In this document: positions 32,280-64,000 of the stretch, in pieces
Position numbering within the stretch: position 1 is the first letter of the stretch
How the letters are laid out: every line of letters begins with the position of its first letter
Assembly (NCBI RefSeq): GCF_024170465.1
Contig: NZ_JALJYF010000002.1
Coordinates: 620,001 to 684,000, forward strand
Source: Natronospira proteinivora
GTDB lineage: Bacteria; Pseudomonadota; Gammaproteobacteria; Natronospirales; Natronospiraceae
Reading direction: 5' to 3'
Length of the DNA: 64,000 nucleotides
Position numbers and translations under genes: made by a program
Notes under the pieces: model-generated
Told to the model about the DNA's origin: nothing
Seen by the model: the letters and a program-made list of their open reading frames with translations, nothing else
Databases searched by the model: none

Positions 32280-32339
32280 AAAACCCTCCGGAAAAATTCC
32301 GATCAACCGTGGCCGCAAGCCGGTTTGGGTGACAAATTC

Positions 32340-32355
32340 GATATCCGCGGATATC
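32340..32355. promoter_or_regulatory. 16-base perfect palindrome upstream of the second subtilase
   Basis: GATATCCGCGGATATC is a perfect dyad about 60 bases upstream of the GTG start at 32279. It could be an operator for a repressor of the protease gene or a short 5'-UTR hairpin. A second perfect dyad, AGTTTCGAAACT, lies at 32534-32545. No matching regulator is identified. Confidence 0.3.
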
Positions 32356-32676
32356 AACGAAAGCGTCCCTTGTACGACTCCGGTGCCCGCGTTCCGAGCA
32401 GGCACCTGCGGCCAAAAAGAGGAGCCGACGCAACGGCGAAATCAATTCGCCGCCACGGTTTGCCGGGGTCGCAACCCCAAGCCACGGATTCAGCCTAGGG
32501 CTGGTAGCGGAGGGATGTTGTGATGGGCTTCACAGTTTCGAAACTAAAATACAACAAGTGACGATACCGTTTTTCAAGGAACGGGGACTTCCAATTTGTT
32601 GTTATAAAAGAAAAAACAAGGAATCAGCAGGAACTTGCGTTGCTCACACACAACAAGCGCAGCCTGCCCCAGGGAT

Positions 32677-46424: not shown

Positions 46425-46769
46425 AGCCACTCGCGGTCGACCTTGCGGCGACTTTAGGGGACACTGTGGTGCTGAAAAAGCAAGCACCTGGACCACCCTT
46501 TTTCTCGCTTTTTATCGCACCGGGGCCTTGACTTATGCACATCACCGGAAGGGATAGCGCATTCGCCACATATGCTCACCCGCCTTATCATGATATTTTT
46601 GTAACCTGCTGATTTAAAATGAAATATACATTCGGTGATTTTTTGACCAATCTAACAGCGGGCTTGCAGGCAACCCCTTCTGGTGGCTTCACACCCAAGT
46701 CGTCCACAAAGTTATCCACAGCTTTTGTGGACAACCACCACGCTCGCCAGCAACCATGAGGGCATCGCC
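46425..46769. other. Intergenic region before priA with AT-rich tract and DnaA-box-like sites
   Basis: 345 bases with no gene. An AT-rich tract spans about 46588-46650. It is flanked by DnaA-box-like sites at 46533-46541 and in 46701-46734 (see separate entry). Near the DUF418 stop is GC-rich sequence with a possible short dyad; nothing else stands out. Confidence 0.6.
46533..46734. promoter_or_regulatory. DnaA-box cluster upstream of priA
   Basis: TTATGCACA (46533-46541) and TTATCCACA (46712-46720) both fit the strict DnaA box TTATNCACA. Near-matches are CGTCCACAA (46701-46709) and, on the minus strand, TTGTCCACAA (46725-46734). The two near-matches also form an inverted repeat around the perfect box. 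An AT-rich tract lies between the outer sites. Confidence 0.45.
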
Positions 46770-48974
<2,205 letters not shown>

Positions 48975-49015: not shown

Positions 49016-49923
49016 CTAACGGCCTCGCCAGCTGGGTGACACCCAGACAACAACATTTAGGAACCTAGCCATCAGCATGATGCTTTTGCTGAGGCGGCCA
49101 TTGCCGTCGTACTCGTAGCTGACGTCGCCCTCGGCTGTTTGGCGGCTTTGGAGTAGGTCGGCCAGGTTGTACTGGGCGGTTTCATTGTTGACGCCGCGGG
49201 TGGTGCTGGTGGTTTGTACGCGGTTGCCGTTGGCGTCGTATTGGTACTGCTCGACGGTTTGGCCGTTTTTGATCACCTCGGTGAGGCGTTGGCGGTCGTC
49301 GTAGCGGTACTCGTAGTGGACTTGGCTGCCGTCGGGCAGGGTTTCGGTCCGGGCGGTGATGCGGCCCAGGCTGTTTCTTTCCAGCTCGTAGTCGAAGCCC
49401 GTGCCGGCAATTTCTTGGCTGACCTCGACGCTTTCGGCGTAGGCGTTGTAGTCCCAACTGCTGCTGAGCACGCCATCACTTAGACCGGTGACCATGCCGT
49501 GTTTGGCGTGGCGGTCGATGTCGAAGCCGTGGATGCCGGTTAAGAGACCATCCTTGTCGTAGCTCAGGCTGGTTTGGCTGCCAGCGTAGCTCATGCTGTC
49601 CAGCTCAAAGTCCGAGTTGTAGCCATAACTCAGGGAGGCGTTCAGCGCGCCCTGGTAGTGGACACCGGTAACCAGGTTGCCGTCCCAGTCGTAGCTGAGG
49701 CTTTCGCTGCCTTGGTGATCTGGCTGACGCGGCCGCCGCAGAGGTAGTCATACTCGATGACGCCTTCCGGGGTAGTGGTACTGACATGCCGGCCGTCGTC
49801 GTAGCTGTGCTCCATGCGTTGGCCGGACGGCAGGGTGACGGCGGTCAGACGCCGGTCCCGGTCGTACTCGTAGGCGGTGGTCCGGTCATCCGGGGCCGCG
49901 TCAACACCGATTAACCTTGGCAC
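49016..49923 (-). pseudogene. Decayed orphan Rhs core fragment (copy A)
   Basis: About 900 bases of Rhs/YD-repeat coding sequence, closely related to the copies at 50.7-64 kb but broken. A one-base deletion near 49713 shifts the frame (the other copies have one base more in this stretch). A second one-base loss in the T run near 49086 derails the 3' end, giving a short junk C terminus. It has no toxin tip and no start. The 5' end (about 49905) is a chimera: PDDRTTAYEYD of one YD repeat is joined to RDRRLTAV of another. The most distal, most degraded member of the array. Confidence 0.88.
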
Positions 49924-50088
49924 TTTTCCACTGCCCTCGGCTCAGTTCATAACCAATACAGCTTCCCAATTGTGAGGAATATCTTCTAGAAAGATAATTC
50001 AAGCTAGATTATGGGTGCAATCGCCCTTTATTCGTCAGTCCGTGAGGCGAACAAGCTGAACGGGATAACCGCCTTTAGTTATCTACGA
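49924..50088. other. AT-richer non-Rhs spacer
   Basis: 165 bases between the decayed Rhs copy A and the Sel1-like gene. No Rhs similarity and no credible frame; lower GC than the flanks. Confidence 0.4.
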
Positions 50089-50697
50089 TTAGAGGGGGAG
50101 TTCTATCCGCCAGTACTGCTCGGGATCGCCCTCCAGTTTCCACAATAATCTAACTGCCCGAATTCGCTTAACGATAGACTGGAAAAATCGACCTTTTAGG
50201 AAGTCAATTTTTGCCATGTAAGTTAATCCATAGACATAACCGCTATCCCATGCCTGCTTAAACATCTTACTTGCATAATCGATATCCTTATCCATGCATC
50301 TTCCTTCCATCGCCATCCTTCCCAGGTGGAAAATAGCTCTAGGATCCTTGGACTCCTCTGCAAGCAGCCGGCAATAAGCGACCGCTTTCTCGCAGCTAGC
50401 CATCCCGCCAAAACCATAAAAATAAATTTTAATTAACTCATAGTATGAGCAAAGAACATCGCCTTCAGACGCAGACCGTTCGTAACACTCGACTGCCAAA
50501 CCCACATCCTGCGGAACATCATTAGATCCGATCAGATAAACTTTACCCAAAACGGAGAGGACAAAAGGATCATTTGTATCGCAGTTGGCCATAATATAAT
50601 TATATGCCCAAGAAACCTCGCCGCGCTCCAACGCCTGAATTGCTGGGCCCACATCATTAGTTGAACTACGTCTACTCACCGCTTCGCCCTTTGGCAT
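50089..50697 (-). CDS. Sel1-like repeat protein, probable immunity protein to Rhs tip B
   Basis: 202 residues built of Sel1/TPR-like helical pairs: LSVLGKVYLIGSNDVPQDVG, YYELIKIYFYGFGGMASCEK, AIFHLGRMAMEGRCMDKDIDY and AYGLTYMAK-like units. No signal peptide, so it should act in the cytoplasm. It starts (ATG 50697; a TTG lies one codon earlier) 11 bases after the stop of the Rhs tip B, the usual place of an immunity gene. Sel1-repeat proteins are known partners of several polymorphic toxins. Codon use is AT-richer than the Rhs core beside it. Confidence 0.7.
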   Translation of the reverse strand: MPKGEAVSRRSSTNDVGPAIQALERGEVSWAYNYIMANCDTNDPFVLSVLGKVYLIGSNDVPQDVGLAVECYERSASEGDVLCSYYELIKIYFYGFGGMASCEKAVAYCRLLAEESKDPRAIFHLGRMAMEGRCMDKDIDYASKMFKQAWDSGYVYGLTYMAKIDFLKGRFFQSIVKRIRAVRLLWKLEGDPEQYWRIELPL

Positions 50698-50708
50698 CAA
50701 TCGCGACT

Positions 50709-52451
50709 TCAGTTTCTAACCTGATGGGTCGTTTGAGAAGGTTGGGCTCGAATCGACCTTTCAAGTCGATGGCGCATTTGTTGATGGGCCGCAATATCAC
50801 TCATATTACTTAGCTCTCCCTGCGCACATCCCGCTGCGAAACCAAGAGCACAGGCTGTTCTCCTTGCCTTATTTCGATCGATCTTTTTTGCTTGAGCCGC
50901 ACAGGATCGCGCCCCTAGCGTGATTGCAGGTCCACCCGCTGCAGCGCCATATAGCACATCTGACGGGATAACTGCAGTATACCGAAATGCATTTACTGAT
51001 TGTGCATACTGCGTTTGCGCCTCTGGAGTACCCCCTATTGGGTCTTTAGAAAATTGAGCAGTGTGCGCTGGGAATACCGATTGAACTACGCCAACTCGCC
51101 GCGGAGAGCGGCTACCTGGATATTCACCAGTCAAGCCGAAGCTATCAATCCATTTCACCGGGTCCCCCAAAACATACCCATAAAGATTCGGATCTCCACC
51201 AGCAAACCCAACCGGATCCCTGGCTATCCATCGTCCGATCCGGGGATCATAGTCCCGATACCCGAAACGAATCAGCCCAGTATGCTCATCGGTTAGCCCA
51301 CCCGCGAATCCAAACGGAATACTGAACTCTGGATTACTGTCCTCTATGACATTCCCATAGGCATCGTACTGGATTTCTCTCAGCACTTCGCCGCTTTCAT
51401 CCACAATCGCCCGCGGACTCCCCAAGTGGCTAGCCAGGATGTAGTAGGTCTCCCCATCCTGGGTAAACCGACTGGGCGTATGCCCAACGATGTATTCAAA
51501 GCGCTGTTTCAGATTCCCGTCACTATCATAGGTCGCCAACAGCGTGGTCTTGTCCTGCCAGAGATAGTACTCCACCACCTCGCCGTCGACGGACTTGGAG
51601 ACACGGTTGCCCAGGGCATTGTGCCGATACTTAATGTGGTGCTCTGGGGTGGTAACCGATTTCAGCCTACCCTGGCTGTCATAGCTGTATTCAGTCACCT
51701 GGCCGTCAGCATGATGCTTTTTGCTGAGTCGGCCGTTGCCGTCGTACTCGTAGCTGACTTCGCCATCAGTCGTTTGGCGGCTTTGGAGTTGGTCGGCCAG
51801 GTTGTACTGGGCGGTCTCGTTCGTGACGTCGCGGGCGGTGCTGGTGGTTTGGACGCGGTTGCCGTTGGCGTCGTATTGGTACTGCTCGACGGTTTGGCCG
51901 TTTTGGATCACCTCAGTGAGGCGTTGGCGGTCGTCGTAGCGGTACTCGTAGTGGACTTCGCTGCCGTCGGGCAGGGTTTCGGTTCGGGCGGTAATGCGGC
52001 CCAGGCTGTTGCGTTCCAGCTCGTAGTCGAACTGGGTTCCGGCTACGCTTTGGGTGACGTCAACGCTCTCGGCGTAATCATTGTATTGCCAACTGCTGTT
52101 GAGGACGCCATCACTTAAGCCGGTGACCATGCCGTGTTTGGCGTGGCGATCGATGCCGAAGCCGTGAATGCCGGTTAAAAGACCATCCTTGTCGTAGCTC
52201 AGACTGGTTTGGCTGCCAGCGTAGCTCATGCTGTCCAGCTCAAAGTCCGAGTTGTAGCCATAACTCAGGGAGGCGTTGAGGGCGCCCTGGTAGTGGACGC
52301 CGGTGACCAGGTTGCCGTCCCAGTCGTAGCTGAGGCTTTCACTGCCTTCAGTGATCTGGCTGACGCGGCCGCCGCAGAGGTAGTCGTATTCGATGACGCC
52401 TTCCGGAGTGCTGGTGCTGACATGCCGACCGTCGGCGTAGCTGTGCTCCAT
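50709..52451 (-). CDS. Orphan Rhs tip B: partial Rhs core with C-terminal toxin module
   Basis: 580 residues with no N-terminal export region. It begins abruptly inside the Rhs core (MEHSYADGRHVSTSTPEGV), with homology to the large gene starting near 52467, and runs through YD repeats to RFGYRDYDPRIGRWIARDP and LYGYVLGDPVKWIDSFGL. After that boundary comes a unique ~140-residue tip containing FPAHTAQFSKDPIGGTPEAQ. The tip has hydrophobic and Cys-containing stretches and a basic end. The same PAHTAQFS.DPIGG.PEAQ motif occurs in the tip of the large Rhs gene; the toxin activity is not recognised. It is likely a displaced tip, silent unless recombined into the main gene. Confidence 0.88.
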   Translation of the reverse strand: MEHSYADGRHVSTSTPEGVIEYDYLCGGRVSQITEGSESLSYDWDGNLVTGVHYQGALNASLSYGYNSDFELDSMSYAGSQTSLSYDKDGLLTGIHGFGIDRHAKHGMVTGLSDGVLNSSWQYNDYAESVDVTQSVAGTQFDYELERNSLGRITARTETLPDGSEVHYEYRYDDRQRLTEVIQNGQTVEQYQYDANGNRVQTTSTARDVTNETAQYNLADQLQSRQTTDGEVSYEYDGNGRLSKKHHADGQVTEYSYDSQGRLKSVTTPEHHIKYRHNALGNRVSKSVDGEVVEYYLWQDKTTLLATYDSDGNLKQRFEYIVGHTPSRFTQDGETYYILASHLGSPRAIVDESGEVLREIQYDAYGNVIEDSNPEFSIPFGFAGGLTDEHTGLIRFGYRDYDPRIGRWIARDPVGFAGGDPNLYGYVLGDPVKWIDSFGLTGEYPGSRSPRRVGVVQSVFPAHTAQFSKDPIGGTPEAQTQYAQSVNAFRYTAVIPSDVLYGAAAGGPAITLGARSCAAQAKKIDRNKARRTACALGFAAGCAQGELSNMSDIAAHQQMRHRLERSIRAQPSQTTHQVRN

Positions 52452-52486
52452 GCGTTGGCCGGCGTCCCAGTATAATGATATGATTA

Positions 52487-52972
52487 TTATTTCATTTTAA
52501 ATTCATGGCCGTTAACGAAAATAGCGCCCTCCTCAACACGATTGATGTAGACTGACTCACCGAGTTCACGGCCACTAATAAGTTTACATGCCTCCCGATC
52601 CACCAGATCAATCTTATAGAATGACTCGTCACTGTAGACTTGAGATGTCGTAACATAAAGGAAATCCCCAGACTTCGACCATACCATCTGTTTAACATCA
52701 GTCATCCAAGCCCCTTCCTGCCAAAAACGATTACCCAATGACCAATCTGTATCTGTCTCGACTGGCCCTGCAGCAGGTCTAGTTAGTATGATACCAATCT
52801 GGGTTCCTAGCGCATCATCGCAAAACACGAACACAGAGAAATCCGACCCTTCTGGATGCTCATGCAGCCCGCTTTGGCAATCAGTTGAAGCTAGCTGAAC
52901 AACCTCACCTTTAGCATATGAACTCGTTGAAAAGATCAACAGGAAAATAGTTACCGCCAGTATCGATTTCAT
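52487..52972 (-). CDS. Exported protein, probable immunity protein to Rhs tip C
   Basis: 161 residues with a clear signal peptide (KSILAVTIFLLIFSTSSYA). The mature part is a beta-rich domain with two Cys (STDCQSGLHEH and FVFCDDA) that may pair, plus a third in REACKL. It starts one base after the stop of Rhs tip C. An exported immunity protein fits a toxin that works on peptidoglycan in the periplasm, as the C tip is predicted to. No named family recognised. Confidence 0.7.
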   Translation of the reverse strand: MKSILAVTIFLLIFSTSSYAKGEVVQLASTDCQSGLHEHPEGSDFSVFVFCDDALGTQIGIILTRPAAGPVETDTDWSLGNRFWQEGAWMTDVKQMVWSKSGDFLYVTTSQVYSDESFYKIDLVDREACKLISGRELGESVYINRVEEGAIFVNGHEFKMK

Positions 52973-52973
52973 A

Positions 52974-54058
52974 TTATCGAATCACCGTTATATTCTGAAT
53001 AGGATCTCCACCATAATGCAGCTCATGTATTTTCTGCATCGCATCATCGGATGTCCTTATGCATCCATTGGTCGAATAATCTATTCCGCACTGGTTAGCC
53101 AGGTCACACTGCCCTTCTCTTCCAGAATGCACCCCCATCCCCTGTCGATCCGGAACTTCAAAAATAAAATTCCCATATGAGCCGAATGGGTCACTTGGGC
53201 CACTACCAGAGTGTGGGCTATGCCATGAAAACTCGAACACGCCCTCCGGGAAAGGCCCAGCACTAGAGCTCTGTGCGTTATTGGCTGCGGGATAACTCTC
53301 ACTTTCACCGGAGCTTGAAATTATTGTCAATACTCCAACATGATCATCATATATTAAGGATGACAATCCAAAAGGATCGATTCGATTTATCGGATCATTT
53401 AGCACATACCCATAAAGATTCAGATCGCCCCCAGCAAACCCAACCGGATCTCGAGCAGTCCAACGCCCATTCCGGGGATCATAATCCCGGTAGCCGAAGC
53501 GAATGAGCCCCGTATGCTCGTCGTTCAGCCCGCCCGCGAATCCAAACGGTATGCTGAATTCTGGATTGCTGTCCTCAATGACATTCCCATAGGCATCGTA
53601 CTGGATTTCGCGGATGACTTCTCCGCTTGAGTCCACAATCGCCCTAGGACTCCCCAGGTGGCTAGCCAGGATGTAGTACGTTTCCCCATCCTGCGTAAAC
53701 CGGCTGGGCGTATGCCCGACGGTGTACTCAAACCGCTGTTTCAGATTCCCATCACCGTCGTAAGTCGCCAACAGCGTGGTCTTGTCCTGCCAGAGATAGT
53801 ATTCCACCACCTCGCCGTCGACGGACTTGGAGACACGGTTACCCAAAGCATTGTGCTGATACTCAATATGATGCTCTGGGGTGATGACTTGTTTCAGCCG
53901 GCCCTGGCTGTCATAGCTGTACTCCGTGACCTGGCCATCAGCGTGATGTTTTTTGCTGAGGCGGCCGTTGCCGTCGTACTCGTAGCTGACGTCGCCATCG
54001 GCCGTTTGGCGGCTTTGGAGTTGATCGGCCAGGTTGTACTGGGCGGTTTCGTTGTTGA
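52974..54058 (-). CDS. Orphan Rhs tip C with L,D-transpeptidase-like toxin domain
   Basis: Rhs homology begins near 54058 without a start codon (first usable start TTG 53846, giving 290 residues) and stays in frame to RDYDPRNGRWTARDP and VLNDPINRIDPFGL. The tip of about 130 residues resembles a YkuD/Tlde1 L,D-transpeptidase. It has a substrate-strand region with GPFPEGVFEFSWHSPH, then GMGVHSGR with a conserved His. YSTNGCIRTSDDAMQKI follows, with the catalytic Cys in the [S/T].GC.R motif, and DPIQNITVIR at the end. It is predicted to attack or alter peptidoglycan cross-links in the target periplasm. A TGA lies just upstream in frame, so it is silent on its own. Confidence 0.85.
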
Positions 54059-54267
54059 TCCTGCAGAGGTCTGGTGGCCAGAATCATGGCCTCCCCAATC
54101 CTTTCCAACAATTCACACGATCACCGATAACAACGAAATTTTAGACGCCCACAGATATCAAAAAACTCAAAACATTAAGCTATAGAAAAGTCATTCAATC
54201 GATCTTCGGACAATTCTGCATGATGAGCGGACTAAAAACTCTACCACTAATGAATTATATCTAGCTC
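54059..54267. other. AT-rich spacer between Rhs tip C and the D partner genes
   Basis: About 209 bases without Rhs similarity. Both strands have short frames only, broken by stops. Probably the remains of an older partner gene or recombination debris. Confidence 0.4.
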
Positions 54268-54630
54268 TCAATCACTAAACCGAATATAACCGATCGAAGG
54301 GGTCAAAAAGTATGGCTCATACTTCACCCAGAACATATGATCCAGACCCGAATCGCGGTACAGCGTTAACTCTCTCTCTATTCCATTTATTGTTAAAACG
54401 ACTTCGAAAGCCTCTTGAGGGTGGGTTCCCGCATACTTAAATTGCGACATTCCTTTAAGCGCAGACAGCACCTGATCCTCACCATAAGGAAATCTCGGGT
54501 CTAGCTTAATTTGCTCAGTCGACTCTATATTTTTTGATATATACCTTGCCGTAGTGATTTGCATTGCCAATGCAGATCCTATGCATAAAAACGTGAAGCC
54601 TATAGCGAAAAACCACTTTGGCCCACCCAT
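54268..54630 (-). CDS. Small membrane-anchored or exported protein, possible immunity protein to Rhs tip D
   Basis: 120 residues: an N-terminal hydrophobic helix (WFFAIGFTFLCIGSALAM, signal peptide or anchor), then a mixed domain (DPRFPYGEDQVLSALKGM, EAFEVVLTINGIERELTLY, MFWVKYEPYFLTPSIGYIRF). AT-rich codon use. The start is ATG 54630, three bases after the 38-residue gene. Co-transcribed with tip D and that small gene, so it is a candidate immunity factor in the periplasm or membrane. Confidence 0.6.
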   Translation of the reverse strand: MGGPKWFFAIGFTFLCIGSALAMQITTARYISKNIESTEQIKLDPRFPYGEDQVLSALKGMSQFKYAGTHPQEAFEVVLTINGIERELTLYRDSGLDHMFWVKYEPYFLTPSIGYIRFSD

Positions 54631-54633
54631 GAA

Positions 54634-54750
54634 TCACTTTTTCAAACCACTTGCAATAATTACGAATCCACTCCAAACCAAGAGTGGGAACATAATTATA
54701 ATAATGACGACTGCTAGCCAAATGTATAACGTCTCGAAAATATCAATCAC
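54634..54750 (-). CDS. 38-residue membrane peptide in the tip D cassette
   Basis: GTG 54750 overlaps the stop of Rhs tip D by 8 bases and opens 38 codons, ending 3 bases before the next ATG. The peptide is one long hydrophobic helix (LYIWLAVVIIIIMFPLLVW, then SGFVIIASGLKK) with an acidic start and two C-terminal Lys. The tight overlap and membrane pattern argue that it is translated. It could be an immunity component or part of a two-gene partner. Confidence 0.55.
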   Translation of the reverse strand: MIDIFETLYIWLAVVIIIIMFPLLVWSGFVIIASGLKK

Positions 54751-55747
54751 AAGTAGAGCCTCGTCGCATCAACCTTTTAACTCTCTCCCAAGTCTCTCTT
54801 GGGTTAAACACGAAGACATTATATGTCCTCGTAGCGTATGTGGAGACGCCCGGCGTGCCAAACCCAAGTGATGCCTCACTGTAAACCCCTTCGTAACGAC
54901 CTTCTTCGCCACCACCCACGACCAATCCAGATGCAACGCCCGGACCCGCTGGCAAACGTGCATTCGCTCCACTTTGGGCACCGATACCCCCTAACTCGGT
55001 AACTTCGACTGCATTTGTATACTCTGTGCTGAGCGACATTGAAGCTTGGGGTGGTGTCCCGCCAGCACCACCTCCTATCTGAAAGGCTATATTTCCATCT
55101 GAATCTCTCACGAAGCCAGAGCGAACTGTAATTCCCTTACCCAATCCCAAGTTCCCGTTCAAGTGAACTCCAACAGTACTCAACCCTTTCGGATTAAAAT
55201 AATTGATCGGGTCCCGCAACACATATCCATAAAGATTAAGATCCCCACCAGCAAACCCAATCGGATCCCTGGCCGTCCAACGCCCAGTCCGCGGATCATA
55301 ATCCCGATAGCCAAATCGAATCAGCCCCGTATACTCGTCGGTCAGGCCACCCGCGAATCCAAACGGAATACTAAACTCTGGATTACTGTCTTCAATCACA
55401 TTCCCATAGCTATCGTACTGGATTTCTCTCAGCACTTCGCCGCTTGAGTCCACAATCGCCCGCGGACTGCCCAGATGGCTAGCCAAGATGTAATAGGTCT
55501 CCCCATCCTGGCTAAACCGACTGGGCGTATGCCCAACGGTGTACTCAAAGCGCTGTTTGAGGTTTCCGTCGCCATCATAGGTCGCCAACAGCGTAGTCTT
55601 GTCCTGCCAGAGATAGTATTCCACCACCTCGCCATCGACGGACTTGGAGACACGGTTACCCAAACCATTGTGCTGGTACTCAATATGGTGCTCTGGGGTC
55701 GTTACCGATTGCAGCCTGCCCTGGCTGTCATAGCTGTATTCAGTCAC
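54743..55747 (-). CDS. Orphan Rhs tip D with Gly-rich C-terminal module
   Basis: 334 residues from GTG 55747. Rhs homology continues in frame to about 56003 but is cut by a nonsense codon at 55832-55834 (TAA where the other copies have CAA). The 5' end is a chimera of two YD repeats (IIFPDGQSLENRYDA joined to NGNRVQTTSTARGV). After RDYDPRTGRWTARDP and VLRDPINYFNPKGL, a ~140-residue tip is rich in Gly and Ser (VGVHLNGNLGLGKGITVRSG, IGGGAGGTPPQASMSLST). It ends in a basic helix (ETWERVKRLMRRGSTCD). Its activity is not recognised; the beta-rich glycine pattern could suit a membrane- or surface-acting module. Confidence 0.82.
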   Translation of the reverse strand: MTEYSYDSQGRLQSVTTPEHHIEYQHNGLGNRVSKSVDGEVVEYYLWQDKTTLLATYDGDGNLKQRFEYTVGHTPSRFSQDGETYYILASHLGSPRAIVDSSGEVLREIQYDSYGNVIEDSNPEFSIPFGFAGGLTDEYTGLIRFGYRDYDPRTGRWTARDPIGFAGGDLNLYGYVLRDPINYFNPKGLSTVGVHLNGNLGLGKGITVRSGFVRDSDGNIAFQIGGGAGGTPPQASMSLSTEYTNAVEVTELGGIGAQSGANARLPAGPGVASGLVVGGGEEGRYEGVYSEASLGFGTPGVSTYATRTYNVFVFNPRETWERVKRLMRRGSTCD

Positions 55748-56015
55748 CTGGCCGTCAGCGTGGTGCTTTTTGCTGAGGCGGCCATTGCCGTCGTACTCGT
55801 AGCTGACTTCGCCCTCGGCCGTTTGGCGGCTTTAGAGTTGGTCGGCTAGGTTGTACTGGGCGGTTTCGTTGTTGACGCCGCGGGCGGTGCTGGTGGTTTG
55901 TACGCGGTTGCCGTTGGCGTCGTAACGGTTTTCCAGGGACTGGCCGTCCGGGAAGATGATCCGGGTGATGCGGTCCCGCTCGTCGTACTCGTAGGCGGTG
56001 ATCCACTAGCAGTAG

Positions 56016-56831
56016 CTAGCCACCAAATATCTCATTCAAAACGCTATCACCATATTTCGATTCATGCTCCATTTGCTTAAGGCAGGCGTCTTGCGCACTA
56101 AGGCTCCACGGCACACCTCCTTCAGCTACCCTGCGATCTAACCTAGCTACGTGACGCGGAGCAAATCGACCTAAGATATTGTACCGCCAATAATATGCAC
56201 TTTTACTCAAATTTCGCCCACGCCACAAAATACTAGCTGCACCCCATAACAAACCAGGGACTCTAGATATTACTGGATACCGTTTTGATTTATCCCGATT
56301 TTCCACCGAATGAGATTCCATATATAGATTGGCCCCAGTGCATAATGCGAACGCAGAATAACTTCCAGAGTGGGCACACTCAGAAAGCATCTTTGCTCCA
56401 AGGCTATACCAATACGAATCATCCCGGCTAACCATTCGATTAATGCAGTAAACAGCAAGGCTAAAATCACGGACAAATTCGGACATGTTAGAGATCGCGC
56501 AAAAATACTGCTCAGCTCCACGGTCACCGATCCATTTTTCACTTGGGGCTGGCTCGACAAACAGCTCACCTACCAAAGCGGCGGCCTCCATCGACTTCGA
56601 TTCTAATGATATATCCAATAATTCCTCATAGGCAGCGTAAAGCGGCCTTGACTTTTCAATAGCGCACAATGCGCGAACAACCTCAACGAGATCACAATCT
56701 TTTTTCAAAATTTGCTCAACTATTGACTTCCTGTCATAGCTCGATCCGAGGCGACCTGAAGACGCTGATAATAGGTAGGGCCTCATAATTGAGCTGTCAA
56801 ATAATGCTATAACTGAATCTTGGTTCATCAT
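56016..56831 (-). CDS. Probable immunity protein to the main Rhs toxin tip
   Basis: 271 residues, cytoplasmic, mainly helical. Segments such as LYAAYEELLDISLESKSMEAAALVG and CAHSGSYSAFALCTGANLY look like degenerate Sel1/TPR pairs. The C-terminal part (VPGLLWGAASILWRGRN, then YWRYNILGRFAPRHVARLD) is Trp/Arg-rich. The ATG at 56831 overlaps the stop of the large Rhs gene (ATGA), the coupling usual for toxin-immunity pairs. AT-rich codon use compared with the Rhs core. Its partial likeness to the Sel1-like partner of tip B agrees with the shared motif of the two tips. Confidence 0.7.
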   Translation of the reverse strand: MMNQDSVIALFDSSIMRPYLLSASSGRLGSSYDRKSIVEQILKKDCDLVEVVRALCAIEKSRPLYAAYEELLDISLESKSMEAAALVGELFVEPAPSEKWIGDRGAEQYFCAISNMSEFVRDFSLAVYCINRMVSRDDSYWYSLGAKMLSECAHSGSYSAFALCTGANLYMESHSVENRDKSKRYPVISRVPGLLWGAASILWRGRNLSKSAYYWRYNILGRFAPRHVARLDRRVAEGGVPWSLSAQDACLKQMEHESKYGDSVLNEIFGG

Positions 56832-59800
56832 GGCCTCCGCGGGCCTCTACGAGGTGCGCGACTTTCCACCTCCTGCTGATGATATATACCCATCGCATCC
56901 GTACGCCCTCGGGTGGACATGTCTGCCGGGACTTCACCTGTGAGCAGAGTTGAAAGCTCAAGGAGCAGATCAACTATATCCATCAATTGGTCTCGATGTC
57001 TCGCTGCCGTCGCACAGGCATAACGGGTCGTCCCAACCCCAATTTTTCCTACTAGCGGACCGGAGACAGCTGCATATCCGGCCGTCGCAGAAGCACCTCG
57101 AATCTGGTTTGTGTTAGCTGAATAGGCCAGCTGAGCTTCTGGCGCCCCACCGATTGGATCTCTGGAGAATTGCGCCGTATGAGCTGGCATAAATGCTTGA
57201 GCGAAAATACCCCGCCTTCCACGGCGGCTATCATAGAACTCACCACGCAATCCGAGCGAATCTAATAGATTAACAGGATCCCCCAACACATATCCGTACA
57301 GGTTGGGATCCCCACCAGCAAACCCAACCGGATCCCTGGCCGTCCAGCGTCCGATCCTGGGATCGTAGTCCCGGTAACCGAAACGAATCAGCCCCGTATG
57401 TTCATCGGTCAGTCCGCCAGCAAATCCAAACGGAATGCTGAACTCCGGATTGCTGTCCTCAATCACACTCCCATAGGCATCGTACTGGATTTCTCTCAGC
57501 ACTTCGCCGCTTTCATCCACAATCGCCCGCGGACTCCCCAAGTGGCTAGCCAGGATGTAGTAGGTCTCCCCATCCTGGGTAAACCGACTGGGCGTATGGC
57601 CGACGGTGTATTCAAATCGCTGTTTGAGGTTTCCGTCGCCGTCATAAGTCGCCAGCAGCGTGGTCTTGTCCTGCCAGAGATAGTATTCCACCACCTCGCC
57701 GTCGACGGACTTGGAGACACGGTTACCCAAAGCATTGTGCTGATACTCAACGTGGTGCTCTGGGGTGGTCACCGATTTTAGACGGCCCTGGCTGTCATAG
57801 TTGTATTCGGTGACCTGACCATAAGCGTGGTGTTTTTTGCTGAGTCGGCCGTTGCCGTCGTACTCGTAGCTGACTTCGCCATCAGTCGTTTGGCGGCTTT
57901 GGAGTTGGTCGGCCAGGTTGTACTGGGCGGTCTCGTTCGTGACGTCGCGGGCGGTGCTGGTGGTTTGGACGCGGTTGCCGTTGGCGTCGTATTGGTACTG
58001 CTCGACGGTTTGGCCGTTTTTGATCACCTCGGTGAGGCGTTGGCGGTCGTCGTAGCGGTACTCGTAGTGGACTTCGCTGCCGTCGGGCAGGGTTTCGGTT
58101 CGGGCGGTAATGCGGCCCAGGCTGTTGCGTTCCAGCTCGTAGTCGAACTGAGTTCCGGCTACGCTTTGGGTGACGTCAACGCTCTCGGCGTAATCATTGT
58201 ATTGCCAACTGCTGTTGAGGACGCCATCACTTAAGCCGGTGACCATGCCGTGTTTGGCGTCGCGGTCGATGTCGAAGCCGTGAATGCCGGTTAAAAGACC
58301 ATCCTTGTCATAGCTCAGGCTGGTCTGGCCGCCGGCATAACTCATCTGATCCAGCTCAAAGTCCGTGTTATAGCCGTAGCTCAGGGAGGCGTTCAGCGCA
58401 CCCTGGTAGTGGACGCCGGTGACCAGATTGCCGTCCCAGTCGTAGCTGAGGCTTTCACTGCCTTCAGTGATCTGGCTGACGCGGCCGCCGCAGAGGTAGT
58501 CGTATTCGATGACGCCTTCCGGGGTGCTGGTGCTGACATGCCGGCCGTCGGCGTAGCTGTGCTCCATGCGTTGGCCGGACGGCAGGGTGACGGCGGTCAG
58601 ACGCCGGTCCCGGTCGTACTCGTAGTGGGTGGCCTCGTCTAGGGGTGTGCGGTAGGCACTGACCCGGTTGACGCCGGTGTAGTCGAACTCATGCTCGGCG
58701 GGTGTGGGCACCACCAGGGTGGTGCGGTTGCCCTTGGCGTCGTAACGGTTTTCCAGGGACTGGCCGTCCGGGAAGATGATCCGGGTGATGCGGTCCCGCT
58801 CGTCGTACTCGTAGGCGGTGTTCCGATCATCTGGGGTGGTGACGGTGGCCACCCGGCCCCGCTCGTCGTAGCTGTAGGCCACCCGGCGGTCGCCGGTGAC
58901 TTCTTCCAGCAGGCGGCCCCGGCTGTCGTACGCATAGCGGGTTTCGGGCAGACCTTCCACCTGGAGGCTTTCCGGCAAAAGGGTGTCGGTATCCAGTTGC
59001 TGGGTGAAGCCCCGGCCCTCGGGGGATTGGTGGCTGATCTGGCCGCTTCTCGCGTCCACGCTCATGCTGGACAGGCGGCCATCACGGCCGCTGACCACGG
59101 TGTAGCGGCTGGTGTCGGCGCCGTTTTCGGCGTAGCTCAGGTCCATTTCCATCACCCGGCGCAGACCACTGGGCTGGGTGAGGGTAATACGCTCGGGCCG
59201 GGGCTGACGGGTTTTGGGGTCACGACGGCTTTCCACCACACGACTGATGTCGCAGGTTTCCGAGGTGGATTCCAAGCCGTCCGCGCTGAGCAGGCTGGTG
59301 GTGACGGTGCCGTTCTTATGGGTGGTCACCGTTTCCACAGCCCCATCGTCCAGGACCCGGCGTTCGGTCTCGTAGGCATTGCCTTCGGCCGTGGTATAGC
59401 CGTAATGATCATGGCCAATGTCGAGACGGTCATCGAAGAAGGACCAACTGCCCCCTTCGGGGTCGCCGGTCTCGATGATGCGGCCATGCTCATCATAGGC
59501 GCGGCTGAAGTTGCCGCCCCGGGGATCGATCTTGTCCGTGGCCAAGCCACAGGCGGTGTAATTGAAGCGGTATTGGGCGCCGTCTTCATAGGTGACGGCG
59601 GCCAGGTGGTGGTCATCGTCCACGGTGAGACGGGTTTCCTGCCCGTCCGGGGCGACGATGCGCTCCACGATACCGTTGGCATCCCGCTCAATACGGACCC
59701 GGTTTCCGAAGCGATCTACCGCAGCAATTAGACGGTCCTCGGCGTCATACTCGAACTCGGTGAGGGTCTTGCCACTGTCCATGTCGATGGTGGCCCTATG

Positions 59801-62800
59801 CCGGCCATCGCCGTCGAAGCGGTAGGGCATGCGCTGGGCGCTGTGGTCGTCGCGCACACAGCGAACATAGAACTCATCTTCCTTTTTGAAGCGTTCGCTG
59901 TTGTAACTGGCGCTCTCAATGGCCCAGGCTCGGTCATCGTCCGAATGGTTTGTCGTAGCACTCCAATAGGGGCGACGGAAATCCACGTCATAGTCCCACA
60001 AGCGACCACGCGCGCTCTCGTCCCATTCGGTCTGATGCCGGAACACCTCATTGGGCAAAGCATAGAGCAGTTCATTGATGTTGGGCAGGCGCCAGTTATC
60101 GTAGCCGGCGTGCTCGGAGGCCTCACAGTGGGCCACGCTGCTTTCCCAGTCCATCTTCTGGGCGGCGTTGGCGTGCCTGTCTTCCCACATCAGGCCATTG
60201 TCCTGATCCACCACCACTTGCTCGACCACATTGCTCGCCAGAGACTCAGGCTGCCGCTCATCCAGGGCTTCGCCACGTACACAGAGTACGGGAAGCATAT
60301 TTAATTCAGGGTTGGCCGTGCTCTGGTGCCAAAGCTGCCTTGCCTGGCGGACATTGTAGATGGCCGGGCCCGGATTGGCGCCGCCCTTGTCCATGCCGTA
60401 AGCGATTTCCTTGGCGGTGGGCAGACGCCAGCCGTCCCCGGGCAGGTCAGCATAGACCTCACACCAGGCCTCAGCGCCCGGCAGGGTAATGACCTGGTGG
60501 GGATTCTCCGCGTACTCCCACTCCAGACCGGTAATACGGTCTTCCAGAATGCCCTCGCTGTTGATGCGGTAATTGATGGTGTTGCCGCCCCGCTGGTAGT
60601 AGCCGTCGTCGCCTTCTACCAGACTGCGGGTCTGGCCGGTCTTGAGAATCACCGACTCATCCGCCACATCCTGAACCCGGCCGTCGCCACGGTAGACCGT
60701 ACCGGCGGGATCGTATTCATGGACATTGGACAGAGACCAGCCATCGGCGAGTTGGCGATCGAAGCTGTTCTTCACCGAGACGCCCCGGCTTTGCCAGCTC
60801 ATGAAGGCTTCCCGGCCGGGGACTTCGGTAGCCCGTTCGCCCAGGGTAGCCCAGGCCATGGGAAACTCATCTGGAGCCTGTTCAGATTCAGCGGCATTGC
60901 CCGCACTCATATAGACGGTGGGGTATTCATAGCCGATCTTGACCTGGCCATGCACCATGCCTTCGGTTCGTTCGCCGTCAATATTCTCGCCGTCCCAGAG
61001 GAAACGCACTTCCCGGTTGGGGGCCGGCGACAGTTCCTTCTTGAACACATGGCCGCCGATTTCCAGTTGCGCCACCATGCGCTCCATGGAATCCGGCACT
61101 TCATCGCCGCTGACGGTGACACGAAACTCGTGCTGATAGCCCTGGGTCCGGCGGCTGCTGTAATGCAGGGTCAAATTGGTGCCGGCCACTTCCAGGTCTT
61201 CGTGGAAGGATTGCTGGAAGGGACGGGCAAAAGAACCGGTTGATGCCGCTTCTGAATTACAGGCGTCCTCCGGATTTTTGTCCACCCCCAGCTCGGAGGG
61301 AGCTTCGGCGTCGTCGGGGGCCCAGTTGTAGTCCCAGGGGGTCATATGGTCGAAATGGCCCCACCAGAGGGTGTCGCCGGGCTCGTAGTGCTCGGCCAGG
61401 CCGATCACATCATCGTGGGTGTAACCACTGCCATTGAGGTCATTGGCTTGGCCATCGCCGGTGTAGTCGGCACCGTCCACCAGACCATCGCCGCTTTCGT
61501 CCACCAGCTGGACCACCACGCCATTGTCGGAGCCCACCCATTGGTTGTCGAGACGATCGAAATAGCCGATGGGAACGATCTCACCTACCTCGAAATCGAG
61601 GAAGTTGTCGATGTACATCACCACATCGTTATCAAAGACCACAGTCTCGGTGTGGTGAGTACCAGCCACATGCAGGTCATTGGCGAAGGTGAAAGCCACT
61701 TCCTTTGGCAATTCCCCGGGCATGGAGGCTGGCGTTTCGTATTCAGTGGCGCTGAAATCGAAGGCGGTAATCTCACGTTCACTGCCATCAAGGCTCATCG
61801 CCGTCGCGGATTGGATGCCATTGAAGATCACCGTGGCCCGCCGCTCGCCAAACTCATCACTGATGAGGGAGGATTGATGAACCTGGGCCTCTCCCGTGCC
61901 GAGCTCGATGCGACTAACGGCGGTATCCCGGGGCAGCATCATGACTTCATCCAAAACCGCCCAGCTACCGGAGGCACCAATGGTGGTCCGTTGAATCACC
62001 AGATGACCGGGGTATTCATACACCACGGTTCTTTCACCCGCCGAGCCGGTAATCATGAAGCGGCCGTCGGCATCGGTTTCCATGGAACCGTGTTCCGGCT
62101 CATTCAGGAAGGACACCTGGACCCCGGGTAGGGGGTCTCCATCGCGGTCCGTGACTAAACCGGTGTAGACCGCCATGGCCATGGGCTCATAGCGCTCTAC
62201 GGTGGCATTGCCCGCCACATGGCGACGCAGCGATTCGGCGGGCGTACCGACCAATTGATCGGTATCCGCGGCCTCACGGACCCGCACATGCAGGCGGTTG
62301 GAGCGCATGCCCTCCAGCCGTGCCAACACCCGGGCGTGGCCTACGCGCTCGGCGCTGATGCGGCCATTATCCACGGAGACGATGGAACGACTATCAGGCG
62401 TGAACTGGGCATAAGGGCTGAGATCAACCTCACCCCCATTATCCATCAGGCCGGTGACCTGAATAGCATGGCTGTCGCCCAGGGCCATGAACAGGGTATT
62501 GGGCTCGATTCGCAGCCCCGTTAGGCTATCGACGTCCACGTGCTGCGGATCAACATGGATCACATGATCGGTATTGCAGCCCTGGGCCTGGCGGGTATCC
62601 ACGCTCTGAATCCGCTCCGCGTCCCAGCTCTCGCCTTGATTAACGGTCTTCAAGACGGTGACATAGCCATAGTCGTTCACGCCATCCAGGGGGTAGTCGC
62701 CCCGGGAAAGACCAAAGCCGAGCACGCCTTGCTGGTGTGGATCATGACTGCTATCGGCCAATCCCACCTGAAAGACATGATCCCGATGGCCCCAAGCAGG

Positions 62801-64000
62801 CCCATCTGCGCCCTCGAACTCCTCAAACCAATCGGCGTCTTCATAGATCCACTGGTAGATGGCCCGAGCAACGGCATAATCCTCGGACGGTATTTCGCTG
62901 TCTAAACCGTAGGCCAGGGACTCGGGATCGATCGGCTGGTTATGGCGATGCTCATCGATGTAGGGCACCGCATCCATGCGTTCCTGAGGGGAGCGCCCAT
63001 CCGCGAAATGATCAATCATCAAGACATTGTCGCGGGTATAGTCGGCGAATTCCTGGGCTGCCGTCACCACCGCGGGGTCAAAGCCGCTGAAAGGCTTGAG
63101 GCCACGGGCCATGCGTTCTGCATTGACCAGATACAGGCCCTTCTCGGAGACGCTCATGGCATCCCAATCGGCTTGATCGGGCATGACGAGATATTGGAAG
63201 ACACTGTCGTCCTGGGCACGGGCGTAGTTGAAGGCCTGGGTGATGGCCTCCACGGTCTCGGCCTGGCCACCCTGCCAGTCGATATTACCGTCCGGGTGGG
63301 TGGGCAGACGGTCCCGATCATCTTCCACCGGATTGTAGGGGCAAGCGCTCAGCCCTCGGCCAGCCTGAACCACCAAGGTGGCCTCAGCGGTGTCTTGCAT
63401 ATCGGCCGCGGAAGTCACGGTCAACTCGATGGCGTACTCGCCGGGCGCCAAGTCGGCCAGATGCAGCTCCGATTCGCTGCCCACAGGTTCGCCATCCAAA
63501 AGCCACTGATAGCTCAACTCGCCTTCCGGGATGTGGCTTTCGGAGGCATCCAAGACCGCTTCGCGGCCTTCATAGACAAACAGATCACCGCGAATTTCGG
63601 CGGTGGGCTGGTGGACCACATCCACGGTCACCGTCTGGCTTGCCGACACCCCTGCCACGGAGGTCACTACAAGCTCGTAGACCCACTCACCAAGGGGCAG
63701 ATCATCCAGCGCCAACACAGGGTCTTGCCCCACGACCTCGCCGTCGTGGAACCACTGGAAGCTTTCAATCTCCCCATCGGGCACATGACTTTCATTGGCA
63801 TCCAGGGTCACAGGCGCGCCTTGGGCAACGGTGACGGCCTCTTCAAGGACGATCACGGGGCGTGGCGGTTGAACATCCACGTCCACCAGTTGTTCGTATT
63901 CCAGGCCATTGGCGTCGGTCATGCGCAGCAGCAGTTGATGCTGCCCCTGGGCCAGACCGGCCAGACTCAGGGTGCCGGATTCACCCAAGACCTCGCCCGT
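56828..64000 (-). CDS. Very large Rhs polymorphic toxin with Ig-like, CAP, Big2, CPD-like and DUF1566 modules (5' end outside window)
   Basis: At least 2390 residues; the frame is open to the right edge, so the export signal is not seen. Visible modules in order (residue numbers from 63988): PKD/Ig-like repeats (1-210; DANESHVPDGEIESF, DASESHIPEGELSYQW). CAP/SCP-like domain (about 270-460; LVNAERMARGLKPFSGF, WGHRDHVFQVGLADSSHD). Big2-like domain (about 490-590). Carboxypeptidase-regulatory-like domain (about 600-690; GLVTDRDGDPLPGVQVSF). Rhs-type N region, then two DUF1566 units (about 1145-1235 and 1255-1380; GDGWRLPTAKEI, DNWRLPNINELL). YD repeats (1390-2200), then RDYDPRIGRWTARDP and VLGDPVNLLDSLGL. 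The ~142-residue tip has the MPAHTAQFSRDPIGGAPEAQ motif. It presumably delivers the tip into competitor cells; the delivery route is not visible. Confidence 0.9.
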   Translation of the reverse strand, partial: TGEVLGESGTLSLAGLAQGQHQLLLRMTDANGLEYEQLVDVDVQPPRPVIVLEEAVTVAQGAPVTLDANESHVPDGEIESFQWFHDGEVVGQDPVLALDDLPLGEWVYELVVTSVAGVSASQTVTVDVVHQPTAEIRGDLFVYEGREAVLDASESHIPEGELSYQWLLDGEPVGSESELHLADLAPGEYAIELTVTSAADMQDTAEATLVVQAGRGLSACPYNPVEDDRDRLPTHPDGNIDWQGGQAETVEAITQAFNYARAQDDSVFQYLVMPDQADWDAMSVSEKGLYLVNAERMARGLKPFSGFDPAVVTAAQEFADYTRDNVLMIDHFADGRSPQERMDAVPYIDEHRHNQPIDPESLAYGLDSEIPSEDYAVARAIYQWIYEDADWFEEFEGADGPAWGHRDHVFQVGLADSSHDPHQQGVLGFGLSRGDYPLDGVNDYGYVTVLKTVNQGESWDAERIQSVDTRQAQGCNTDHVIHVDPQHVDVDSLTGLRIEPNTLFMALGDSHAIQVTGLMDNGGEVDLSPYAQFTPDSRSIVSVDNGRISAERVGHARVLARLEGMRSNRLHVRVREAADTDQLVGTPAESLRRHVAGNATVERYEPMAMAVYTGLVTDRDGDPLPGVQVSFLNEPEHGSMETDADGRFMITGSAGERTVVYEYPGHLVIQRTTIGASGSWAVLDEVMMLPRDTAVSRIELGTGEAQVHQSSLISDEFGERRATVIFNGIQSATAMSLDGSEREITAFDFSATEYETPASMPGELPKEVAFTFANDLHVAGTHHTETVVFDNDVVMYIDNFLDFEVGEIVPIGYFDRLDNQWVGSDNGVVVQLVDESGDGLVDGADYTGDGQANDLNGSGYTHDDVIGLAEHYEPGDTLWWGHFDHMTPWDYNWAPDDAEAPSELGVDKNPEDACNSEAASTGSFARPFQQSFHEDLEVAGTNLTLHYSSRRTQGYQHEFRVTVSGDEVPDSMERMVAQLEIGGHVFKKELSPAPNREVRFLWDGENIDGERTEGMVHGQVKIGYEYPTVYMSAGNAAESEQAPDEFPMAWATLGERATEVPGREAFMSWQSRGVSVKNSFDRQLADGWSLSNVHEYDPAGTVYRGDGRVQDVADESVILKTGQTRSLVEGDDGYYQRGGNTINYRINSEGILEDRITGLEWEYAENPHQVITLPGAEAWCEVYADLPGDGWRLPTAKEIAYGMDKGGANPGPAIYNVRQARQLWHQSTANPELNMLPVLCVRGEALDERQPESLASNVVEQVVVDQDNGLMWEDRHANAAQKMDWESSVAHCEASEHAGYDNWRLPNINELLYALPNEVFRHQTEWDESARGRLWDYDVDFRRPYWSATTNHSDDDRAWAIESASYNSERFKKEDEFYVRCVRDDHSAQRMPYRFDGDGRHRATIDMDSGKTLTEFEYDAEDRLIAAVDRFGNRVRIERDANGIVERIVAPDGQETRLTVDDDHHLAAVTYEDGAQYRFNYTACGLATDKIDPRGGNFSRAYDEHGRIIETGDPEGGSWSFFDDRLDIGHDHYGYTTAEGNAYETERRVLDDGAVETVTTHKNGTVTTSLLSADGLESTSETCDISRVVESRRDPKTRQPRPERITLTQPSGLRRVMEMDLSYAENGADTSRYTVVSGRDGRLSSMSVDARSGQISHQSPEGRGFTQQLDTDTLLPESLQVEGLPETRYAYDSRGRLLEEVTGDRRVAYSYDERGRVATVTTPDDRNTAYEYDERDRITRIIFPDGQSLENRYDAKGNRTTLVVPTPAEHEFDYTGVNRVSAYRTPLDEATHYEYDRDRRLTAVTLPSGQRMEHSYADGRHVSTSTPEGVIEYDYLCGGRVSQITEGSESLSYDWDGNLVTGVHYQGALNASLSYGYNTDFELDQMSYAGGQTSLSYDKDGLLTGIHGFDIDRDAKHGMVTGLSDGVLNSSWQYNDYAESVDVTQSVAGTQFDYELERNSLGRITARTETLPDGSEVHYEYRYDDRQRLTEVIKNGQTVEQYQYDANGNRVQTTSTARDVTNETAQYNLADQLQSRQTTDGEVSYEYDGNGRLSKKHHAYGQVTEYNYDSQGRLKSVTTPEHHVEYQHNALGNRVSKSVDGEVVEYYLWQDKTTLLATYDGDGNLKQRFEYTVGHTPSRFTQDGETYYILASHLGSPRAIVDESGEVLREIQYDAYGSVIEDSNPEFSIPFGFAGGLTDEHTGLIRFGYRDYDPRIGRWTARDPVGFAGGDPNLYGYVLGDPVNLLDSLGLRGEFYDSRRGRRGIFAQAFMPAHTAQFSRDPIGGAPEAQLAYSANTNQIRGASATAGYAAVSGPLVGKIGVGTTRYACATAARHRDQLMDIVDLLLELSTLLTGEVPADMSTRGRTDAMGIYHQQEVESRAPRRGPRRP

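What the first reader, a model, noticed from the sequence alone, without database searches (positions are those of the whole stretch)
49016..64000. Rhs toxin gene followed by an array of four orphan core/tip copies
Downstream of the large Rhs gene lie four partial copies of its 3' core. Three (52.4-50.7, 54.06-52.97 and about 56.0-54.74 kb) end in different toxin tips, each directly followed by its own partner gene. One (49.9-49.0 kb) is decayed. Each copy starts at a different YD repeat, lacks an export region and keeps 0.7-1.3 kb of homology to the main gene. This is the known Rhs main-gene plus orphan-tip arrangement, which allows tip switching by recombination. Here it is unusually rich, and the tips look mostly undescribed.
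Basis: partly seen in the sequence, partly recalled or inferred. Interest (0 to 1): 0.85.

Follow-up and report, generated by a model that had tools for sequence, protein, structure and literature searches.

The report
Teneurin-like toxin gene with spare tips
A giant bacterial toxin gene, related to the bacterial ancestors of animal teneurins, is followed by three spare toxin tips with their likely protection genes and by one ruined copy, and the shared sequence shows traces of past exchange between the main gene and the spares.

Summary
The array is real. Downstream of the large gene lie four partial core copies: three with their own tips and partners, one decayed. The main/orphan-tip arrangement is known from Rhs loci (Jackson 2009; Koskiniemi 2014).

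(1) The main gene is not a T6SS-type Rhs. Its nearest solved relative is a bacterial teneurin-like protein, TLP, with the NHL propeller replaced by Lcl_C domains. The genome has no VipB or PAAR match. (2) The gene continues beyond the window; one in-frame amber codon separates it from its signal peptide. (3) The locus fills about 20.4 kb between priA and argS, which lie 70 to 3267 bp apart in three relatives. (4) Cores show traces of tip exchange: main-orphan identity tracts, and a tip-proximal loss of identity in 12 of 13 main-orphan pairs from six loci.

Orphan copies follow 7 of 19 related main genes; the TLP paper's main text never uses "orphan" or "array". 55 of 58 tips of the family carry a cysteine, against 22 of 32 other Rhs tips. 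Verdict: new variant of a known kind; toxicity and switching are inferred.

The parts
56828..64000 (-). Main gene, 3' part (TLP/Rhs). Continues past the window: 3010 codons stop to stop; an in-frame TAG at C2:685861-685863 separates it from an upstream 1130-aa ORF with a signal-peptide-like start (C2:685864-689253)
61937..62182 (-). TTR-like / carboxypeptidase-regulatory-like domain (PF25020 over cut-off; PF13620 below), residues 1226-1307 of the 3009-aa ORF
61229..61261 (-). FN-plug cleavage-site-like stretch CNSEAASTGSF with the Cys that aligns near BiTLP C719
   Evidence: function inferred from PMC13018210
59819..60604 (-). 262-aa stretch in the place of the NHL propeller of bacterial teneurins; holds the best Lcl_C match (residues 1880-2002) and, by eye, a second one
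57248..59818 (-). YD-shell / Rhs core, ending in DPVG...DSLG
56831..57247 (-). Main tip, 139 aa, no family match; single Cys
56016..56831 (-). Partner (putative immunity) of the main tip, 271 aa; ATG overlaps the main stop, GGAGG just upstream; no family match
55181..56004 (-). o3 core fragment: 56004-55904 (98%) joined to 55924-55209 (88.5%), core end at 55181; one in-frame TAA at 55834
54743..55180 (-). o3 tip: glycine-rich, Cys at the second-last residue; the preceding core motif has N (NPKG) in place of the usual second D
54268..54630 (-). Putative partner of o3, 120 aa, hydrophobic N-terminus; a 38-residue hydrophobic ORF lies between it and the tip
53364..54058 (-). o2 core fragment (86.1% to main)
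52974..53363 (-). o2 tip: YkuD-type L,D-transpeptidase domain
   Evidence: PF03734 E 3.5e-5; homologue on another core
52487..52972 (-). Putative partner of o2, 161 aa with signal-peptide-like N-terminus (by eye)
51132..52462 (-). o1 core fragment; DNA homology to the main gene runs on to 51016, about 115 nt into the tip
50709..51131 (-). o1 tip, related to the main tip in its first part
50089..50700 (-). Putative partner of o1, 203 aa, Sel1 repeat protein
   Evidence: PF08238 E 2.8e-10
49016..49895 (-). o4, decayed core fragment without tip or partner
46683..48974 (+). priA homologue, left flank of the accessory locus (argS is the right flank, near C2:689,400)
   Evidence: the name priA is recalled, argS from Pfam

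Best explanation
This is an accessory polymorphic-toxin locus that fills the interval between priA and argS. Its main gene encodes a teneurin-like shell protein, of a family with Sec-type export signals, that encloses a small C-terminal toxin. Downstream lie three displaced tip-plus-partner modules, each with a piece of core, and one ruin. SHOWN by sequence: the anatomy, the relationship to TLPs, Lcl_C in the place of the NHL propeller, the lack of a Shine-Dalgarno-like start at the orphan 5' ends, identity tracts shared between the main gene and three orphans, and lower identity next to the tip. INFERRED: tips are antibacterial toxins, freed by autocleavage and possibly tethered to the FN-plug by a disulfide; partners protect; a new tip enters by recombination within the shared core, so that the core next to the tip travels with it; the old tip and its partner are pushed downstream, where they stay as silent spares and as a store of immunity. 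The amber codon in the 5' part of the main gene means that in this genome as assembled the shell is probably not exported, unless the codon is read through or is a sequencing error.
For: PDB best hit 'Teneurin-like protein' (9pt5/9ifo) E 2e-174, against 2e-40 or weaker for Rhs-family structures; two aligned stretches cover BiTLP 400-941 (TTR to FN-plug) and 1279-2144 (YD-shell). TEN_YD-shell and TTR_TEN1-4 over Pfam cut-off. Signal-peptide-like or lipobox starts, by eye, in 16 of 17 related mains (G054 is the exception). No VipB and no PAAR match in the genome. Main-orphan identity runs: o1 187 nt (0 of 5000 shuffles), o4 106 and o2 95 nt (0 of 2000 each); the orphan-orphan pairs o3-o2, o3-o1 and o2-o1 show none. 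In G054 both main-orphan pairs have long runs (0 of 1000 shuffles each), the orphan-orphan pair only 52 of 1000. Last 150 nt of core less identical than the most upstream bin in 12 of 13 main-orphan pairs. dN/dS 0.07-0.16 between copies. 7 of 19 related mains have orphan copies downstream. The YkuD tip occurs on a different Rhs core in G216. priA-argS distance between hits 355, 3267 and 70 bp in G002, G001 and G003, against about 20.4 kb here.
Against: No activity, expression or strain-level tip exchange was observed. NHL, a defining TLP domain, was not found in this main gene, and the FN-plug match is below Pfam's cut-off. main-o3 shows no long run (646 of 2000 shuffles); o1-o4 shares a 74-nt run (78 of 2000; 43 of 1000). 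In the second own locus no main-orphan pair stands out (164, 328 and 55 of 1000 shuffles) while orphan pair oB-oC does (0 of 1000), and in G037 orphan-orphan tracts are as long as main-orphan ones, so the main gene is not a general hub. The loss of identity towards the tip is not monotone, and one pair of 13 (second own locus, main-oC) runs the other way. The amber codon argues that the main gene may be inactive. Signal peptides were judged by eye and hydropathy only.
Confidence: 0.8

Rival explanations
1. Conventional T6SS Rhs effector locus with orphan tips, as in Enterobacteriaceae.
For: Same main/orphan layout (PMC2935791 passages); RHS_repeat and DPxG motif.
Against: Closest structure is a TLP; no PAAR or VipB match in the genome; signal-peptide-like starts in relatives; TTR-like domain.
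Confidence: 0.06
2. A dead locus: the amber codon has inactivated the main gene, and the array is decaying without function.
For: In-frame TAG between signal peptide and shell; o4 decayed, o3 with a stop; no shell-core match in two congeners, both drafts.
Against: The 3010-codon frame after the TAG and the 1148-codon frame before it are open; copies differ mainly at synonymous sites, though that selection may predate the split.
Confidence: 0.3
3. Orphans are mainly a store of immunity genes against related strains; the tip pieces are passengers.
For: Partner ORFs are open while one core piece has a stop and one is ruined; immunity gene arrays are known in T6SS loci (PMC5361080, listing and abstract start only).
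Against: The three tips o1-o3 remain open and each keeps at least one Cys; identity tracts tie three of the cores to the main gene.
Confidence: 0.35
4. Assembly artefact in repeats.
For: Repeats of 0.7-1.4 kb in a draft of four contigs.
Against: Copies 86-93% identical with distinct tips and partners; contig of 1.19 Mb; the same layout at a second locus and in other genomes.
Confidence: 0.03

Closest known systems
Bacterial teneurin-like proteins (TLPs), BiTLP of Bacillus inaquosorum (PMC13018210; PDB 9pt5, 9ifo)
   Same: TTR, FN-plug and YD-shell in order, DPxG cleavage motif, Cys near the FN-plug cleavage site, variable tip with a downstream partner
   Different: NHL propeller not found, its place taken by Lcl_C; orphan tip array downstream ('orphan' and 'array' 0 occurrences in the paper's main text); amber-split N-terminus
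Enterobacterial rhs loci with displaced tips (Jackson 2009, PMC2935791)
   Same: Core fragments of variable length, each with a tip, in a string downstream of one full gene; displacement model
   Different: There attached and displaced cores were reported as always identical (passage); here they are 86-93% identical, least so next to the tip
Salmonella Typhimurium LT2 rhs main/orphan pair (Koskiniemi 2014, PMC3967940)
   Same: Orphan lacks initiation and export signals; recombination through shared core attaches the orphan tip (passages)
   Different: One orphan with 95% identity over 522 bp there; three tipped orphans plus one ruin here; different main-gene type
Tlde1 / YkuD L,D-transpeptidase-type effectors
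   Same: o2 tip matches PF03734; an orphan tip in G010 matches Tlde1_dom PF10908; the o2 partner has a signal-peptide-like start
   Different: Carried as a tip of a teneurin-like core; activity untested

Membership tests
Bacterial TLP (definition in PMC13018210, section read) | FN-plug domain | tested here: inconclusive
   PF24329 E 4.4e-4, 20.9 bits, below cut-off 27.8; BiTLP 400-941, which includes the FN-plug, aligns with 229.7 bits
Bacterial TLP (definition in PMC13018210, section read) | NHL propeller between FN-plug and YD-shell | tested here: not met
   No TEN_NHL or NHL hit at E 0.01; the stretch holds Lcl_C. Of four related mains scanned, three (G054, G226, G319) carry TEN_NHL and one (G258) does not
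Bacterial TLP (definition in PMC13018210, section read) | YD-shell in frame and in order | tested here: met
   PF25023 E 4.7e-39; PDB TLP E 2e-174
Bacterial TLP (definition in PMC13018210, section read) | Variable tip with a gene immediately downstream (property reported for TLPs) | tested here: met
   271-aa ORF overlapping the main stop; protection not tested
Bacterial TLP (definition in PMC13018210, section read) | TIP domain (96% of TLPs by the paper) | not tested
   No model of it was at hand; BiTLP 400-941 aligns as a whole
T6SS Rhs effector | PAAR domain and T6SS in the genome | tested here: not met
   No PF05488 and no PF05943 match in the genome; they rang in 3 and 1 of 14 control genomes
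Rhs main/orphan array (Jackson 2009; Koskiniemi 2014) | Downstream core fragments without start or export signals, each with a distinct tip and partner | tested here: met
   o4 has neither tip nor partner
Rhs main/orphan array (Jackson 2009; Koskiniemi 2014) | Tip switch by recombination with the main gene | tested here: inconclusive
   Identity tracts and tip-proximal divergence; no rearranged strain seen
YkuD / L,D-transpeptidase-type tip (o2) | YkuD domain with His and Cys motif | tested here: met
   PF03734 24.8 bits, cut-off 23.4; H-S-G and T-N-G-C-I-R stretches, of which the G216 homologue shows H-A-G and T-L-G-C-I-R; the motif is recalled; no NCBIfam or PDB sequence match

The most novel reading that the evidence does not exclude
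Bacterial teneurins are a tip-switching toxin platform. TLP-type genes of this bacterial class often carry downstream banks of silent tip-partner modules that are exchanged through the core, and the modules keep a cysteine so that whichever tip is loaded can be tethered by disulfide to the FN-plug of the shell. A subfamily has exchanged the NHL propeller for lectin-like Lcl_C domains, so the shell's outer parts are modular too.
Probability: 0.45. Interest if true: 0.75.

Novelty: new variant of a known kind. Interest (0 to 1): 0.6.

Why it matters
Bacterial teneurins are held to be the source of animal teneurins and were described in 2026 as shells around a toxin; how their tips diversify was not treated in that paper's main text as far as its terms were searched. 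If TLP loci carry banks of exchangeable tips, the decoupling of shell and tip that the paper discusses gets a concrete mechanism. The cysteine pattern, if it holds, gives a simple test of whether disulfide tethering is general.

Tried and rejected
Site-specific cassette borders: in the second own locus two orphans begin at almost the same core position (-524, -523), but the flanks differ and other arrays scatter, so no common border motif is claimed. Plasmid-borne relatives: all core hits were under 60% identity, and the o2 and o3 tips gave no plasmid match. Structure of the o3 tip: AlphaFold2 on a single sequence gave mean pLDDT 40, not used. Homologues of the main and o3 tips: no genome of 274 besides the own one. 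Homologues of the amber-separated N-terminal ORF: none in the other 38 of 39 genomes searched. A pattern for the FN-plug Cys motif missed 3 of 19 mains, which were then inspected by eye: G054 and G324 have it, G173 is doubtful. The alignment window held a Cys in 16 of 19; two of the three misses had that region cut off by my 1750-residue limit and the third seems misaligned. CAP domain: found in G037 only.
Full report
OBSERVATION. The window lies at C2:620001-684000 of a 2.93-Mb assembly in four contigs. On the - strand the main ORF ends at 56828; downstream, DNA comparison finds four partial copies of its 3' core, with E 0.0 for the four main alignments. They start at different places of the core: about 1576, 689, 1330 and 1588/1384 nt before the core end for o3, o2, o1 and o4. 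The 5' junctions are abrupt. o3 joins an earlier 101-nt piece (98%) to the later 716 nt, so it has an internal deletion, and carries a TAA; o4 is frameshifted and has no tip. o1-o3 keep open tips, and partner ORFs follow. Of the starts listed for the orphans only one, a TTG about 0.5 kb inside o3, has a Shine-Dalgarno-like sequence, whereas the main partner has GGAGG just before its ATG.

THE MAIN GENE. It continues beyond the window. The frame is open for 3010 codons, is preceded in the same frame by a single TAG, and before that by 1148 open codons; an ATG 18 codons in begins a signal-peptide-like stretch. The upstream ORF carries an HCBP-related domain. By eye, the TAG falls inside an Ig-like repeat that resembles the repeat just before it. 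Whether the codon is real, read through or an error cannot be told here. Pfam finds Lcl_C (four stretches), PKD, a teneurin TTR-like domain and the teneurin YD-shell; FN-plug is below cut-off and NHL is absent at E 0.01. Against solved structures the best match is the bacterial teneurin-like protein (E 2e-174); animal teneurins follow (6e-63 and weaker) and Rhs-family structures come at 2e-40 or weaker. The alignment covers BiTLP 400-941 and 1279-2144; what lies between in BiTLP is mostly the NHL propeller (929-1255), and here 262 residues that hold the best Lcl_C match and, by eye, a second. G037, whose core is 63% identical, also has Lcl_C (two stretches), the best of them between its FN-plug and YD-shell matches. 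I found no VipB and no PAAR match in the genome.

RELATIVES. Twenty-two of 369 genomes in a class sample, the own genome included, have a core match at E 1e-40 or better; the class is not named by the tools. From these hits I fetched 20 stretches. Of the 19 main genes then examined (17 from other genomes, two own), 7 have orphan core copies downstream; of the 15 with at least 3.6 kb of downstream sequence, 7 do. This is a choice of the best hits, not a random sample. Four of the other mains were scanned with Pfam: two with orphans (G054, G226) carry TEN_NHL, TTR and YD-shell over cut-off (FN-plug below cut-off in G054, not listed in G226); of two without, G319 carries TEN_NHL and G258 does not. 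So arrays also follow genes closer to the formal TLP definition. The second locus of this genome (C1 about 1,423,500-1,437,000) has one main gene and three orphans; G037 has one main gene and at least four pieces. The two congeners and the one family member, all drafts, have no core match at E 0.001. In them priA and argS hits lie 3267 bp (G001), 355 bp (G002) and 70 bp (G003) apart, and 1379 bp in G037, against about 20.4 kb here; the gap of G001 holds a 998-aa ORF without visible Rhs repeats. The locus is thus accessory.

TRACES OF EXCHANGE. dN/dS is 0.07-0.16 over all pairs of copies measured, so most divergence arose while the core was under selection; this suggests, but does not prove, that the pieces came from once-functional genes. 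Longest identity runs exceed all shuffles for main-o1 (187 nt), main-o4 (106) and main-o2 (95), but not for main-o3 or for o3-o2, o3-o1 and o2-o1; o1-o4 is intermediate (74 nt; 78 of 2000 and 43 of 1000 shuffles). The shuffles ignore rate variation along the core; the orphan-orphan pairs serve as an internal control. G054 shows the same contrast. G037 does not: main-oA and main-oB share a 542-nt exact tract, but oA-oB share 607 nt. In the second own locus no main-orphan pair stands out, while oB-oC does. Binned by distance, the last 150 nt are less identical than the most upstream bin in 12 of 13 main-orphan pairs, and in third codon positions also in 12 of 13, one of them by a single point; the fall is not monotone; the exception is main-oC of the second own locus. 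o4 was left out because it lacks those bins, and oD of G037 and the fragments of G325 were not included. This is what tip exchange by crossing over in the core would leave.

TIPS AND PARTNERS. o2 matches YkuD over cut-off, and its partner starts like a periplasmic protein. A 48% identical tip, the only other one in 274 genomes, sits on a different, conventional-looking Rhs core in G216, next to another gene with a signal-peptide-like start: the tip is modular. An orphan tip of G010 matches Tlde1. The main, o1 and o3 tips have no significant family match. The o1 partner is a Sel1-repeat protein, and so is an ORF after an orphan in G037. The o3 tip is glycine-rich; the paper reports outer-membrane-protein-like tips among TLPs, but the single-sequence model of o3 is useless.

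A CYSTEINE PATTERN. In BiTLP a tip cysteine is bonded to a cysteine of the FN-plug. In the mains gathered here the FN-plug stretch has 2.89% Cys against 0.16% elsewhere in the aligned part, and 18 of 19 have a Cys close to a G-S or G-C site (16 by pattern, 2 by eye), with one doubtful. Tips: 18 of 19 mains (the exception is a 35-aa tip) and 27 of 27 orphans have at least one Cys. Of named genomes, 10 of 11 TLP-like records do, 10 of 12 with L036, which I had first misplaced; of the other Rhs proteins 22 of 32 do. Together 55 of 58 against 22 of 32 (Fisher P 0.0013; 0.0005 without the 35-aa tip). Twelve of the 27 orphans come from loci where no full main gene was verified; 23 records were left unclassified and the unclosed ones were dropped; relatedness of tips is not corrected, and the controls differ in taxonomy. 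I read this as a lead.

LITERATURE SEEN. PMC13018210: abstract and outline, sections 6, 7, 10 and 12, and term searches. PMC2935791 and PMC3967940: passages only. Others: listings only. That orphan arrays at TLP loci are unreported rests on these searches alone; supplements were not seen.

VERDICT. A real and largely known arrangement on an unusual chassis: a teneurin-like shell with a swapped domain, carrying a bank of tips. Interest is moderate to high; toxicity, export and switching remain to be shown.

Noticed in passing
C1 about 1,423,500-1,437,000 (L030 3518-16975): A second teneurin-like main gene (2545 codons, signal-peptide-like start) with three orphan core/tip pieces; one tip weakly resembles Peptidase_C97 (E 0.0014, below cut-off).
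   Followed up: partly
window 28240-29841 and 30354-32405: Two neighbouring subtilisin-like (by eye) protease ORFs whose 3' ends are 87% identical over 413 nt.
   Followed up: no
L028 9861-9863 (C2:685861-685863): A lone in-frame TAG between two long open frames of one apparent gene, with a GTG as the second codon after it.
   Followed up: partly
FN-plug site of the mains of G050 (C26), G258, G172, G217 (both), G371 and G324: Cys in place of the Ser that the TLP paper calls highly conserved at the FN-plug cleavage site.
   Followed up: no
window 55193-55195 (o3): The second Asp of the core cleavage motif is Asn in o3, which may prevent autocleavage if that tip were loaded with its own core end.
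   Followed up: no
L153 2457-5453 (G001): The priA-argS interval of a congener holds a 998-aa ORF with a lipoprotein-like start and no visible Rhs repeats, so the interval may be an insertion hotspot.
   Followed up: no
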